From NCBI RefSeq assembly GCF_000421185.1, contig NZ_ATWJ01000001.1, forward strand, positions 1 to 64,000: DNA of 64,000 nucleotides. Direction: 5' to 3'. Below the pieces are notes generated by a model. The model did no database searches, had not been told where the DNA came from, and saw only the letters and a program-made list of their open reading frames with translations. The translations under genes and the position numbers were made by a program. This stretch comes from Ornithinimicrobium pekingense DSM 21552. Its GTDB lineage: Bacteria; Actinomycetota; Actinomycetes; Actinomycetales; Dermatophilaceae. This document shows positions 44,119 through 48,026 of this stretch, in pieces (the stretch's first letter is position 1; every line of letters starts with the position of its first letter).

Positions 44119-45092
44119 CGGGCTGCCTCCTCGCGGAAGACGTCCTCGAGCCGGCCGGTCTGCGGCTGCACCCGGACCAGGCCCAGGCCCAGGTCGGCCG
44201 CGGTGTCGCGCACGAGGTCCCGCAGGGCGTCGTGCACGGCGGCCGCCTGCTCCTCGGGTATGCCGTCGCGGCGGTCGGGGTCGATCTCGATCAGCGCCCC
44301 CCGGGCCCGGCAGCTCACACCGCGGGCGGCGAGCGCCTCGCCCATGCGGGCCTGTGCCGGCGTGCCGTCCGGCGCCGCGTCGCCGATGACCTCGACGAGG
44401 ACCACCCCCGTGTCGCCCAGGAAGGACTGGGTCGCCTCGGAGCGGAGCAGGTGGCCGGAGTCCAGGACGACGACGTGGTCGCTGATGCGCTCCAGCTCGC
44501 CGAGCAGGTGGGAGGTGACGAGCACGGGGATCCCGAAGTCGTGGCCGATCCTGCGCACCAGCGCCAGCATGTCGTCACGCGCCGCAGGGTCGAGACCGTT
44601 GGTGGGCTCGTCGAGCATGATCAGCGCAGGGTCGTGCACCAGCGCCTGGGCGAGCTTGGCGCGCTGCTTCATCCCGGTCGAGTAGCCGCCCATGAGCCGG
44701 TAGCGCTCCTCGGCCAGCCCCACGTGGCGCAGGACGTCTGCGGCGCGCTCGCGGGCGGCCGCCGCAGGCAGGCCGGAGACCTGCCCCATGTGCACCACGA
44801 AGTCGATCGCGCGCATGTCCGGCGGCAGGCAGTCGTGCTCGGGCATGTAGCCGACCGCGGTGCGGATCGCCTCACCCTCGGTGCGGATGTCGTGCCCCAG
44901 GACACGTGCGTCGCCGGAGGTCGGGCTGAGCAGCCCCAGCAGGATTTTGATGAGGGTGGACTTGCCGGCACCGTTCGCACCGACGAGCCCGGTCACCCCC
45001 GCGTCGACGTCGATGGTGAGGCCGTCGAGGGCGGCGACGCCGCTGCTGCTGCCGTAGCGTTTCGTCAGCGCCTCTGTCTGGATCACCCCCAT
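44115..45092 (-). CDS. ABC-2 type transporter ATP-binding protein
   Basis: The 325-residue ATPase has Walker A GANGAGKST, signature YSTGMKQRAKLA, Walker B LIMLDEPTNGLDP and TSHLLGE, plus a C-terminal ~100-residue extension. It heads the operon; TAGGGT lies eight bases before its ATG (45101-45106), so the operon mRNA is probably nearly leaderless. Two similar ATPase/permease pairs in tandem suggest duplication. Confidence 0.92.
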   Translation of the reverse strand: MGVIQTEALTKRYGSSSGVAALDGLTIDVDAGVTGLVGANGAGKSTLIKILLGLLSPTSGDARVLGHDIRTEGEAIRTAVGYMPEHDCLPPDMRAIDFVVHMGQVSGLPAAAARERAADVLRHVGLAEERYRLMGGYSTGMKQRAKLAQALVHDPALIMLDEPTNGLDPAARDDMLALVRRIGHDFGIPVLVTSHLLGELERISDHVVVLDSGHLLRSEATQSFLGDTGVVLVEVIGDAAPDGTPAQARMGEALAARGVSCRARGALIEIDPDRRDGIPEEQAAAVHDALRDLVRDTAADLGLGLVRVQPQTGRLEDVFREEAAR

Positions 45093-45189
45093 GACCGATC
45101 ACCCTAGTGAGCGGTGCTGGGCTTTGGCTGGGGTGCAGGCCCCCGTGTCGCGCGGGGGTCAGCCGGCGCGGGATATACATGGAGGCACC

Positions 45190-46314
45190 ATGACCGCCCC
45201 CTCCTCACCCGCCTCCAACGTGACCGGTCGTGCCCTGCACACGCTGCCGAAGGCCCACCTGCACCTGCACTTCACCGGCTCCATGCGCATCACGACGCTG
45301 CGTGAGCTCGCGGACAAGCATGGCCTGCGGCTGCCCCCCGCCCTGACGACGCAGTGGCCGCCCGAGCTGAGTGCCCGGGACGAGCGGGGCTGGTTCCGGT
45401 TCCAGCGACTCTACGACGCGGCACGGGCCTGCGTGCGGGACGAGGCGGACATGCGACGGATCGTGCGGGAGGCCGCCGAGGACGACGCGGCGGAGGGGTC
45501 TCGCTGGCTCGAGATCCAGGTCGACCCGACCTCATACGCCCCGTTCGTGGGCGGCATCACGCCCGCGATCGAGATCGTGCTCGACGAGGCCCGCGCCGCG
45601 AGCGCCGACACGGGCACCCAGGTGGCCGTGGTCGTCGCCGCGAGCCGGATGCGCCATCCGCTGGACGCGCGGACCCTGGCCCGGCTCGCCGCCCGGCACG
45701 CCGGCGTCGGGGCGGGGTCGGTGGTGGGGTTCGGTCTGAGCAACGACGAGCGCCGAGGCATGACCGAGGACTTCGCGGCCGCCTTCCGGATCGCCCGGCG
45801 GGCCGGTCTGGCGAGCGTCCCCCACGCCGGTGAGCTCCTGGGCGCCGACCACGTCGAGGTCGCCCTCGAGCACCTCGCCCCCGACCGGTTGGGACACGGC
45901 GTGCGGTCGGTGGAGGACCCAGAGGTCCTGCGCCGGGTGGTCGAGGAGCAGGTCGTCCTGGAGGTCTGCCCGACCAGCAACGTCGCGCTGGGCGTCTACG
46001 GCTCCGCGGCCGAGGTGCCGCTGCCCCGCCTGCTCGCCGCGGGTGCCCTGGTGGCCCTCGGCGCCGACGACCCGTTGCTCTTCGGCAGCCGCCTCGTCGA
46101 CCAGTACTCCCTCGCACGTGAGGCCCACGGTCTCGACGACGCCGCGCTCGCCCAGCTGGCCCGCGGCTCGATCGAAGGATCCCAGGCACCGCCCGACGTG
46201 CGGGCGCGGCTGCTGCAGGGCGTCGATGAGTGGCTCGGGGAGCCCCAGCGCGCCATGACCGTCGACCGTTCCGCGGTCAGCGGGGCGGTGTGCTCGGCCC
46301 GGGACGCCGTCTAG
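45190..46314 (+). CDS. Adenosine deaminase family protein
   Basis: The 374-residue amidohydrolase carries the adenosine deaminase motifs: zinc histidines in HLHLHFTGSM (H25 and H27), HAGELLG, DRLGHGVR, CPTSNVALG and the Asp pair in GADDPLLFGS. The HFTG in place of the usual HLDG, and SMRITTL, mark a subfamily frequent in Actinobacteria; activity on adenosine or another purine is expected. GGAGG precedes the ATG, and TATACA (45173-45178) is a -10 candidate. Confidence 0.88.
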   Translation: MTAPSSPASNVTGRALHTLPKAHLHLHFTGSMRITTLRELADKHGLRLPPALTTQWPPELSARDERGWFRFQRLYDAARACVRDEADMRRIVREAAEDDAAEGSRWLEIQVDPTSYAPFVGGITPAIEIVLDEARAASADTGTQVAVVVAASRMRHPLDARTLARLAARHAGVGAGSVVGFGLSNDERRGMTEDFAAAFRIARRAGLASVPHAGELLGADHVEVALEHLAPDRLGHGVRSVEDPEVLRRVVEEQVVLEVCPTSNVALGVYGSAAEVPLPRLLAAGALVALGADDPLLFGSRLVDQYSLAREAHGLDDAALAQLARGSIEGSQAPPDVRARLLQGVDEWLGEPQRAMTVDRSAVSGAVCSARDAV

Positions 46315-46336
46315 GGCGGGGATACACGCGCCTCAC

Positions 46337-46485
46337 GTGACATTGGTGCACCACCTGCACCAAAGGGTCGGCTGGTGCACCACCTGCACCAAAGGGTCGG
46401 CTGGTGCACCACCTGCATCAAAGGGTCGGCTGGTGCACCCTGTGTGCCACGGGGTCGGTTGGTGTACGGAGCACGCCAATGTCAC
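46337..46485. repeat. 29-bp tandem repeat array flanked by inverted repeats
   Basis: Three near-identical 29-base units start at 46344, 46373 and 46402 (TGGTGCACCACCTGCACC then AAAGGGTCGGC; only one C-to-T change in unit 3). A degenerate fourth unit starts at 46431 and a partial fifth at 46460. Each unit has the dyad GGTGCA-N5-TGCACC. GTGACATTGG (46337-46346) and CCAATGTCAC (46476-46485) are perfect inverted repeats at the ends. Copies decay toward the downstream gene. Confidence 0.9.
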
Positions 46486-46514
46486 CTGTAGCCGTCCACA
46501 CGTCCCCTCGGACT

Positions 46515-46535
46515 CACGGCTTGTCCACAGCCGTG
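46515..46535. promoter_or_regulatory. DnaA-box-like word inside a dyad
   Basis: TTGTCCACA (46521-46529) matches the high-GC actinobacterial DnaA box exactly and is embedded in CACGGCT-N7-AGCCGTG (46515-46535). A one-end match, CCGTCCACAC, lies at about 46491-46500. They stand between the tandem repeats and the XRE gene. Whether DnaA binds is untested. Nothing else coding is visible in 46315-46580. Confidence 0.5.
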
Positions 46536-46580
46536 CTGCCAGCCGTGGCACCGAGCCGCACCGCCCCGGATGCTCGGCGG

Positions 46581-47066
46581 ATGGGAAAGAGGAGCGGCCT
46601 AGCGGGGGCGCGGCGAGATGTCGGGCTGGCCCTACGAGCACACCGACGGGAACGCGGGGAGAGCCAGCGGGCGTACGCCCGCAAGCGGCGGCTGAGCAGA
46701 GATGTCCTTGTCCGGGCCGAGGTGGATGCCGGCGGGCTGCGTCTCGACGCTGTGATGCAGCTCCTGGAGGGGACAGGGTTCGGGCTCGCCGTTGTCCGCA
46801 CCGACCAAGCACCACCTGCGATCGGGTGGGACCTCACGGACCTGGAGGCGCGGACCCGTCGCGGCAGCCGTTTCCCGGCCCACCGCCAGGTGCGCCGGAG
46901 CGTCCGGGGACCGCTGTGGTGGCACTACCACGAGGTCCTGGGCGGTAGGGGGCTCGGCCCGCAACCGGCGTGGACCGCCGAGGGGTTCATCCCGCCGGAG
47001 GGCACGCGCTACGGCAAGGAGCCACGACCCTACGAGGAGGGCGAGGGGCCGCGCTGGCCCTACTAG
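46581..47066 (+). CDS. Small XRE-like helix-turn-helix protein
   Basis: The 161-residue protein has an N-terminal HTH-like region (RRDVGLALRAHRRERGESQR to about residue 60) and a C-terminal tail rich in Arg, Gly, Pro, Tyr (GPLWWHYHEVLGG, PPEGTRYGKEPRPY) that I cannot assign. The ATG at 46581 is chosen because codons further upstream run into the tandem repeats. It is likely a DNA-binding regulator and the array just upstream is its natural candidate target. Confidence 0.7.
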   Translation: MGKRSGLAGARRDVGLALRAHRRERGESQRAYARKRRLSRDVLVRAEVDAGGLRLDAVMQLLEGTGFGLAVVRTDQAPPAIGWDLTDLEARTRRGSRFPAHRQVRRSVRGPLWWHYHEVLGGRGLGPQPAWTAEGFIPPEGTRYGKEPRPYEEGEGPRWPY

Positions 47067-47074
47067 GACCTGGG

Positions 47075-47089
47075 GGCCCGATTCGGGCC
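47075..47089. terminator. Short hairpin between convergent genes
   Basis: GGCCCG-ATT-CGGGCC lies 8 bp after the XRE gene and 20 bp before the lipoprotein gene's end. Confidence 0.5.
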
Positions 47090-47108
47090 ATGCGGCTCGT
47101 CCCGGAGG

Positions 47109-48026
47109 TCAGTCCCCGGCCAGCGGTCGCAGCGCCGCGGTGATGGTCACGTCCTGCGGGTCGAGCCACGGCGCGACCGTCTCCAGCACCGCGTCGACGG
47201 TGGCACGGTCGGTGACGACCACCTCCACCTCGAGCCGGCCGGAGACCCCGCCTGCCCCTGCGGAGAGCAGGCGCAGCTCCGCGAAGCGGTCGCTGAGCGC
47301 TTCCTGGGCGGCGCGCATCGCGGCCTGGGTCGGCAGGTCCAGCTGCTCGACGCACAGGCCGCCCTTCCAGACCGTCCGCAGCTGGGCGAACGCCGCCTCC
47401 GGGTCGGAGGTGACCACCACGTTGAACAGGCTCGAGCCGTCGGACACCCAGGAGGTCACGTAGCCGTCCAGCCCGTCGAGGGCGACCGCCACGCGCTCCT
47501 GCGCGCCGAGGTCCCCGGACGCCGACCGGTCGCCGTCGATATAGGGGTCCTCGCAGAGCTGCTCGAACGAGACGTCGCCGGGACTGGGCACGGCATACCC
47601 CTCGGGCGGGTCGGCCGAGACGGGCCGAGAGAGGGTGAAGGAGCCCTGGTCGCCTCCCCCGCCGGGGTCGTAGGTACCGACGGCCCACCACGCCGTGTCG
47701 GTCCAGGTGACGCCACCCGAGCGCTGCGGCGCCACGTCGTCCCAGGAGAAGTCGCCCTCGAGCACCGGCCCGCCGCACTGCGGCGGGAGGGACTCCGCGA
47801 CGCCACCGACGCAGATCTCCACCGGCCGGTCCGGCGCCGACTGCATCAGCAGACCGTGGGCCACGAGCTTCTCGCCCGGCTCGACCACGACCGGGCCGTC
47901 AACGTGGTCCGACGAGCCCTGCGACGGCCCGGCTCCCGGCGGATTCGCCGTCGTCGCCCCGCATCCGGAGACAGCCAGCAGTGCGCCGACGAGAGCGGCG
48001 TGCCAGGCGCGAGTGCTGAGCCTCAT
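47109..48026 (-). CDS. Putative lipoprotein of unknown function
   Basis: The 305-residue protein has a lipoprotein signal: basic MRLSTRAWHA, hydrophobic ALVGALLAVS and lipobox VSGC with Cys at residue 22. The rest is Gly/Asp/Pro-rich with two paired cysteines visible (EICVGG...PPQCGG) and LCEDPYIDGD; I recognise no domain. It should be anchored outside the membrane. The neighbouring murB gene is on the same strand 39 bp further on. Confidence 0.72.
   Translation of the reverse strand: MRLSTRAWHAALVGALLAVSGCGATTANPPGAGPSQGSSDHVDGPVVVEPGEKLVAHGLLMQSAPDRPVEICVGGVAESLPPQCGGPVLEGDFSWDDVAPQRSGGVTWTDTAWWAVGTYDPGGGGDQGSFTLSRPVSADPPEGYAVPSPGDVSFEQLCEDPYIDGDRSASGDLGAQERVAVALDGLDGYVTSWVSDGSSLFNVVVTSDPEAAFAQLRTVWKGGLCVEQLDLPTQAAMRAAQEALSDRFAELRLLSAGAGGVSGRLEVEVVVTDRATVDAVLETVAPWLDPQDVTITAALRPLAGD

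What the first reader, a model, noticed from the sequence alone, without database searches (positions are those of the whole stretch)
46337..46535. 29-bp tandem repeats with terminal inverted repeats and a DnaA-box word upstream of an XRE-type gene
Three near-perfect plus two decaying 29-base direct repeats, each with the dyad GGTGCA-N5-TGCACC, sit between perfect 10-base inverted repeats (GTGACATTGG/CCAATGTCAC). Immediately after come TTGTCCACA within a dyad and a partial second copy, then a small HTH protein. Direct repeats beside DnaA boxes recall iteron origins or DnaA-titration sites, while dyad-bearing tandem units beside an HTH gene recall a cooperative operator. No family I know matches the whole locus, so it may be a small regulatory or replicative module.
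Basis: partly seen in the sequence, partly recalled or inferred. Interest (0 to 1): 0.7.

Follow-up and report, generated by a model that had tools for sequence, protein, structure and literature searches.

The report
Regulator gene with dispersed DNA-repeat arrays
A small bacterial gene-regulator sits behind a strip of repeated DNA palindromes that also appears, in each lineage's own sequence dialect, at other places in the genome, which suggests that the protein and its repeats have changed together.

Summary
The repeat is real and larger than reported. Window 46335-46487 is a capped array: cap ACGTGACA, five 21-bp dyads at 29-bp period, inverted cap. It belongs to a dispersed family in Ornithinimicrobium/Serinicoccus with 1-9 units, mostly at gene 3' ends (49 dispersed elements: 22 convergent, 17 co-directional, 3 divergent, 6 inside called ORFs, 1 unresolved).

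All 16 orthologues of the downstream XRE gene have such an array upstream (13 of 16 also by script), followed by a pair of DnaA-box-like words 29-31 bp apart. The dyad differs between lineages. Dispersed arrays mainly share the dyad of their own genome's XRE-linked array (10 of 11 genomes by word count; in the eleventh the linker confuses the count). The two XRE positions that best track dyad class are 40 and 41, at the start of the recognition helix. Many paralogous XRE genes also have upstream capped palindromes.

Best reading: the XRE protein recognises the dyads, autoregulates, and has a REP-like dispersed set of sites. Binding is inferred, not shown. An iteron origin is not supported; an RNA role is less likely.

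The parts
46335..46342 (+). left cap ACGTGACA (terminal inverted repeat)
   Evidence: the same left cap bounds the two single-unit elements on contig 11 of this genome and recurs across the genus
46343..46371 (+). unit 1 (21-bp dyad 46343-46363) plus 8-bp linker AGGGTCGG
   Evidence: 8 of 8 dyad pairs complementary
46372..46400 (+). unit 2 plus linker
   Evidence: 7 of 8
46401..46429 (+). unit 3 plus linker
   Evidence: 6 of 8, one G.T and one A.C
46430..46458 (+). unit 4 (diverged) plus linker
46459..46479 (+). unit 5 (diverged)
46480..46487 (+). right cap TGTCACCT (inverted copy of the left cap, outer two bases imperfect)
46492..46500 (+). first DnaA-box-like word CCGTCCACA
   Evidence: pair present in 16 of 16 orthologues, with degenerate words in several
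46521..46529 (+). second DnaA-box-like word TTGTCCACA, 29 bp after the first
46581..47066 (+). XRE-type HTH protein, 161 aa (start codon not certain; homology begins near residue 12)
   Evidence: weak Pfam HTH matches in 5 of 10 aligned relatives but none for this member itself; AlphaFold model mean pLDDT 80.7; Foldseek top matches HipB and C.Esp1396I, E about 0.04, TMt 0.58-0.69, none at E 0.001 or better
45091..46314 (+). upstream gene, adenosine deaminase (add); neighbour, not part of the module
   Evidence: PF00962, E 4e-93

Best explanation
An XRE-type DNA-binding protein and its cognate repeat. The protein binds, as a dimer, the 21-22-bp dyads of a capped tandem array. The array upstream of its own gene is its multi-site operator (autoregulation), and the gene is also preceded by a conserved pair of DnaA-box-like words. 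In Ornithinimicrobium/Serinicoccus the capped array has been copied, REP-like, to between one and about thirteen detected further sites per genome, mainly at gene 3' ends. There the XRE-bound arrays most likely act as nucleoprotein insulators or read-through barriers rather than promoter operators. The dyad and the XRE recognition helix have changed together between lineages. Shown by sequence: architecture, linkage, dispersal, lineage-specific dyads, helix correlation, 3'-end bias. Inferred: binding, autoregulation, the insulating role and the copying mechanism.
For: 16 of 16 XRE orthologues have the array directly upstream. Caps recur as inverted pairs at quantised spacing (26 plus multiples of about 28-30). 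Dispersed arrays use mainly the dyad word of the XRE-linked array in 10 of 11 genomes with both by raw count; in G007 the linker TGAGTCAA adds a second word, but the arms agree. XRE positions 41 and 40 score highest for separating dyad classes; D41 is present in the 7 TTGGTGC-class proteins and in none of 9 others. In 9 XRE-linked arrays read on the XRE strand, inner-arm mismatches are G.T 15 and A.C 16, so there is no RNA-strand bias, as expected for a double-stranded DNA site. Dispersed elements are convergent 22 to divergent 3, against 13 to 18 for other gaps (Fisher p 7e-4). Strong inverted repeats stand upstream of paralogous XRE genes too: score 14 or more in 7 of 16, against 2 of 175 control stretches.
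Against: No binding data. The dyad classes follow phylogeny, with only six classes. Position 124, outside the HTH, separates the classes almost as well as 40 and 41 (0.82 against 0.83). G023 has capped elements but no XRE hit (fragmented assembly of 570 contigs), and G005 keeps one degenerate element at a conserved site without the orthologue. One of three dispersed arrays in G016 (L227) has a different, TTGGC-type dyad. G003 gave no paired dispersed element. A 29-bp period puts successive sites off the same helical face. The caps, the most invariant part, are not explained by the XRE helix. Many counted elements are orthologous to each other and so not independent, and the home-made gene caller labels the same homologous site differently in different species (L185/L187/L188 co-directional, L201 divergent). 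In about 10% of two genomes with only a paralogue, no dispersed copies of its palindrome were found.
Confidence: 0.5

Rival explanations
1. REP-like selfish repeats (MITE-type) with terminal inverted repeats GGGGACGTGACA, spread by an unlinked transposase in trans. The XRE gene is a host regulator that has taken one copy as its operator, or is simply a favoured neighbour.
For: Near-invariant caps, variable n, presence/absence between species (array in G009 and G018, none in the G014, G007 and G019 stretches that hold the conserved right-hand gene), same-class arrays at homologous sites across species and no dispersed site shared between dyad classes, 3'-end bias as described for REPs (passages of PMC3733652).
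Against: The array is beside the XRE gene in 16 of 16 orthologues, and capped palindromes stand before many paralogues; the helix-dyad correlation. No target-site duplication was seen where sites were compared, but no clean empty site was obtained and the other flank is not conserved at the G009/G018 site. No transposase was identified, but none was sought genome-wide.
Confidence: 0.27
2. RNA element: the arrays are transcribed hairpins (bidirectional terminators, mRNA 3'-end stabilisers, or an RNA antitoxin as in type III toxin-antitoxin loci).
For: Strong inverted repeats; 3'-end and convergent placement; array upstream of a 161-aa ORF as in type III toxin-antitoxin loci (recalled).
Against: No excess of G.T over A.C mismatches in the 9 XRE-linked arrays scored; no U-tract terminator in 46200-47200; only a modest excess of folding with DNA parameters, z -1.98, 6 of 200 shuffles as good (RNA folding was not run); Rfam's only hit in 46000-47200 is a below-threshold eukaryotic snoRNA; the protein is an HTH fold.
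Confidence: 0.14
3. Iteron-type replication origin or DnaA-titration site.
For: Direct repeats beside two DnaA-box-like words.
Against: The words go with the XRE gene, not with the arrays; array sites in the two genomes compared show no common position relative to the parS cluster; no Rep match; no homologue in the plasmid or phage collections.
Confidence: 0.04

Closest known systems
REP / REPIN repeats with RAYT transposases
   Same: Dispersed short palindromes, each genome with its own sequence class, tied to a gene beside the same palindrome, mostly between co-directional and convergent genes (passages of PMC2817692 and PMC3733652).
   Different: Paired caps at both ends plus tandem units with fixed 28-30-bp period; the linked protein is an XRE helix-turn-helix protein, not a tyrosine transposase; the array is upstream of the gene, and a second copy downstream was not seen in the window.
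Palindromic operators of autoregulated XRE regulators (HipB, restriction-modification C proteins)
   Same: Closest fold by structure; dyad upstream of the regulator's own gene; XRE regulators as dimeric, often autoregulatory palindrome binders (start of abstract of PMC12565409).
   Different: Up to nine tandem dyads between inverted caps; dispersed copies at gene ends; no toxin or restriction partner was recognised among the neighbouring ORFs read, though they were not all scanned.
Iteron origins
   Same: Tandem repeats and DnaA-box-like words beside a small DNA-binding protein gene.
   Different: Dispersed on the chromosome, no Rep match, the words are not linked to the arrays.
Type III toxin-antitoxin loci (recalled)
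   Same: Repeat array upstream of a small ORF.
   Different: No RNA signature found; the ORF is an HTH protein; arrays also occur alone.

Membership tests
REP/RAYT | GTAG or CGTC tag at one end of the palindrome | tested here: inconclusive
   The ends of the elements listed are ACGTGACA-type caps on both sides; the letters CGTC occur in the outer stem (TGTCACGTCCCC) and in the Serinicoccus cap ACGTCACA, but paired and at both ends. No separate tag scan was run.
REP/RAYT | cognate tyrosine transposase beside the repeat | tested here: not met
   the linked gene is an HTH protein with no transposase match; a genome-wide search for a RAYT was not run
REP/RAYT | dispersed, genome-specific palindrome class with 3'-end bias | tested here: met
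Autoregulated XRE with palindromic operator | XRE-type HTH fold | tested here: met
   (weak scores, consistent fold)
Autoregulated XRE with palindromic operator | conserved dyad upstream of its own gene | tested here: met
   16 of 16 orthologues
Autoregulated XRE with palindromic operator | protein binds the dyad | not testable with these tools
   only indirect: positions 40 and 41 track the dyad class
Iteron origin | Rep initiator gene | tested here: not met
   the linked protein has no Rep match; no homologue in plasmids or phages
Iteron origin | autonomous replication | not testable with these tools
   none
Type III toxin-antitoxin | ToxN-like endoribonuclease fold | tested here: not met
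   the matched part is an HTH fold; the C-terminal part has no match
Type III toxin-antitoxin | structured repeat RNA | tested here: inconclusive
   no strand bias in pairing; no expression data
MITE | terminal inverted repeats | tested here: met
   caps
MITE | target-site duplication | tested here: inconclusive
   none seen at the sites compared, but no clean empty site was obtained
CRISPR array | unique spacers between repeats | tested here: not met
   8-bp recurrent linkers, no spacers; cas genes were not searched for

The most novel reading that the evidence does not exclude
A categorically new kind of genome-resident system: a family of XRE-type proteins, each paired with its own capped palindrome array, in which the protein takes part in copying or maintaining the arrays across the chromosome. 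When the recognition helix changes, the old set of sites is lost and a new set is seeded from the array beside the gene. This would be a REP-like repeat population run by a regulator rather than by a transposase.
Probability: 0.2. Interest if true: 0.88.

Novelty: new variant of a known kind. Interest (0 to 1): 0.7.

Why it matters
The best-known dispersed palindromes with a cognate gene are tied to a transposase. Here the cognate gene is a small HTH regulator, and several dyad 'dialects' exist side by side in one genus with matching changes at two residues of the recognition helix. That makes protein-DNA co-evolution directly testable by swapping a helix or a dyad. It also offers a way to ask what protein-bound arrays at gene ends do, and how a repeat population turns over when its reader changes specificity.

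Tried and rejected
Operator of a classical regulon: rejected as the sole role because dispersed arrays are rare in divergent (promoter) gaps. RNA hairpin reading: tested by mismatch type per strand in 9 XRE-linked arrays, no signal (the same count in dispersed arrays, 30 to 29, is uninformative because their strand is arbitrary); U-tract terminators none; Rfam nothing above threshold. Chromosome-position marker: parS lies near coordinate 0 in G009 and G014; cap positions show no common pattern (G009: six of ten at 0.38-0.47 Mb from it, the rest to 1.94 Mb; G014: 0.24 then 1.16-1.83 Mb). Covariation outside the caps: weak. Target-site duplications: sites compared were too diverged to read; one G018 single-unit element lies in a linker inside an ORF. 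Plasmid or phage origin of the XRE gene: no match. The 73 viral stretches with the cap pattern were not analysed. Dispersed copies of paralogue-type caps: besides one 241-bp pairing that looks like chance, only the gene-linked copy in 400 kb each of G012 and G005, inconclusive. Literature (listings and starts of abstracts; passages of PMC2817692 and PMC3733652) showed no description of this family; most subscription journals are not held.

Rows dropped and missed: five false pairings (L068 1493-1754, L137, L143 1389-1576, L153 1312-1524, L240 1539-1744) and two rows (L097, an unrelated order-level hit; L125, the same element as L075) were left out of the 62-element set (13 XRE-linked, 49 dispersed). 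Three XRE-linked arrays (G011, G029, G030) were read by eye because their caps fell outside the script's pattern. Three further capped arrays of G018 (L242, L243, L245), seen, are not in the set; cap pairs of G023 on small contigs were not all fetched. So all element counts are minima.

Full report
WHAT IS THERE. The five 29-bp repeats lie between inverted caps: ACGTGACA, then five 21-bp dyads joined by 8-bp linkers (AGGGTCGG or GGGGTCGG), then TGTCAC. The length fits exactly: 6 + 4 x 29 + 21 + 6 = 149 bases for 46337-46485. Tandem Repeats Finder ranks it first of 18 rows in the window. Between the array and the HTH gene lie two DnaA-box-like words, CCGTCCACA and TTGTCCACA, 29 bp apart.

A FAMILY IN THE GENOME. 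The same kind of caps bounds other elements in the window's own genome: two single-unit palindromes (contig 11, 299958 and 305144), a three-unit array (contig 7, 151872) and a two-unit array with one recognisable cap (contig 11, 307472). The XRE protein has a single match there at E 0.001.

A FAMILY IN THE GENUS. The close named relatives are Ornithinimicrobium and Serinicoccus. In 58 genomes (the window's own included) the cap word ACGTGACAYYGG was counted; in several it occurs as inverted pairs at quantised distances (G009: 26, 56, 86, 115-116, 146), with control counts of 0-3 per genome (the list of places was capped, the counts were not). The seven genomes with an XRE orthologue of the TTGGTGC class have 4-29 cap words; the 16 genus genomes without an orthologue have 0-4, except G023 with 11. 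Units are about 21 or 22 bp, period 28, 29 or 30, n = 1 to 9.

LINKAGE TO THE XRE GENE. The orthologue (E below 1e-55) is in 15 of 31 genus genomes, counting the window's own, and in none of 27 others, where one weaker relative was seen (G031). With O. cerasi this makes 16, and all 16 have a capped array just upstream (by reading; 13 of 16 also by script), although the neighbouring gene is not the same in all (add in some; a tRNA-Gly and dcd side in others, the gene names recalled from sequence). Two TNRTCCACA-like words follow. With spacing fixed at 28-31 the best pair has 3.4 mismatches over 18 bases on average against 8.4 in shuffled sequence, and P is 0.015 or less in 16 of 16 (mononucleotide shuffles). 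With spacing left free from 10 to 80, the best pair includes a spacing of 29-31 in 16 of 16 and is only such in 12 of 16. Several words are degenerate.

DIALECTS AND CO-CHANGE. The dyad is TTGGTGC in seven genomes, GGGTC-type in G003, GCTTCC in G016 (O. tianjinense), TTGCCC in G024, GGYTCA in O. cerasi and TGAGTC-type in five Serinicoccus-like genomes, which also have caps of the ACGTCACA type. In 10 of 11 genomes with both kinds, the commonest word of the dispersed arrays is also that of the XRE-linked array; in G007 the linker TGAGTCAA raises the TGAGTC count (7 against 6), but the arms are TTGGTGC. One of three G016 elements (L227) departs. The search words alone do not produce this: one search looked for the TTGG type in all genomes and allowed both GG and GC types; but TGA-type caps were sought only in five genomes. 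Among aligned XRE positions, 41 and 40 separate dyad classes best (0.83 each; then 124 at 0.82, and 0.73), and D41 is present in all 7 TTGGTGC-class proteins and in none of 9 others; a few N-terminal positions also differ but are aligned in only one or two others. In the model these residues open helix 40-48, the second helix of the HTH; that such residues contact DNA in XRE proteins is recalled. Classes follow phylogeny, so this is suggestive, not proof.

DISPERSED SITES. Of 49 dispersed elements, 22 lie between convergent genes, 17 between co-directional genes, 3 between divergent genes, 6 inside called ORFs and 1 is unresolved; other gaps of 40 bp or more in the same loci are 13, 54 and 18 (Fisher convergent against divergent p = 7e-4). 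Genes were called with a home-made codon-usage caller trained on the window; it missed the XRE gene at its first threshold and labels one Serinicoccus homologous site co-directional in three species and divergent in a fourth. Flank comparison groups dispersed elements into nine clusters of homologous sites, all within one dyad class (for example L121, L155, L051, L150 in four genomes; L185, L187, L188, L201 in four Serinicoccus-like genomes), with n differing (5 against 2 at L145/L158). No dispersed site is shared between classes in this set: the best cross-class flank match is 65 bits, against more than 150 for cluster members. At one site present in G009 and G018, the G014, G007 and G019 stretches that hold the conserved right-hand gene show no such element there; the left-hand flank is not conserved in them, so rearrangement is possible.

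DNA OR RNA. In the inner arm positions of 9 XRE-linked arrays read on the XRE strand, G.T and A.C mismatches are equal (15 and 16), so there is no sign of selection for a folded transcript (the GCTTCC, TTGCCC and TGAGTC arrays were not in this count). No U-tract terminator was found in 46200-47200.

PARALOGUES. XRE relatives with the same C-terminal motif in Phycicoccus, Nostocoides and other Ornithinimicrobium genomes often have capped palindromes or arrays upstream, with other caps, dyads and periods (L133 period 25; L084 three units; single palindromes in L079, L080, L082, L085, L087). In 420-bp upstream stretches, inverted-repeat scores of 14 or more occur in 7 of 16 paralogues and 6 of 16 orthologues, against 2 of 175 control stretches (the 420-bp limit cuts off several orthologue arrays, and the window's own stretch scores only 10). 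L083, L135 and L136 showed no clear element. TNRTCCACA pairs at 28-31 bp reach P of 0.05 or less in 12 of 14 paralogues against shuffles.

MECHANISM. I commit to a DNA-level reading: XRE dimers occupy the dyads, cooperatively in an array, repress or tune their own promoter, and sit at gene ends elsewhere, where the simplest use is a barrier against read-through. The caps, more constant than the dyads, are probably read by something else: another part of the protein or a second factor. How arrays are copied is open. REP-like behaviour is supported by placement, genome-specific classes and turnover; REP membership is not, because the linked gene is not a transposase.

LIMITS. Nothing here shows binding. 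Homologous elements inflate the counts. Whole-genome searches were capped and three capped G018 arrays (L242, L243, L245) were missed by the set, so element numbers are minima. A transposase was not sought genome-wide.

Noticed in passing
   Followed up: no
L324 9033-9166 and L326 7901-8091 against L327 8199-8235: In a linker inside an ORF that resembles an ABC-transporter gene (by eye), G009 and G019 have a different repeated motif (CGACCGAGCGCGT...) where G018 carries a single-unit capped palindrome.
   Followed up: partly
   Followed up: partly
L139 4014-4050: A contig of an uncultured Propionibacterium MAG has a single-unit capped palindrome (ACGTGAGC...GCTCACGT) about 3 kb from a partial XRE relative.
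   Followed up: no
L135: A contig labelled Desulfovibrio MAG encodes a 55% identical XRE relative with TCCACA words but no array in the 600 bp upstream; possibly a binning error.
   Followed up: partly
L227 1500-1594 (G016): A three-unit capped array with a TTGGC-type dyad in a genome whose other arrays are GCTTCC-type; may be a relic of an earlier dialect.
   Followed up: no
window 46337-46423: Rfam's only hit in 46000-47200, SNORA76 (21.9 bits, gathering score 37), is taken as a chance match of a eukaryotic snoRNA model to the repeats.
   Followed up: yes
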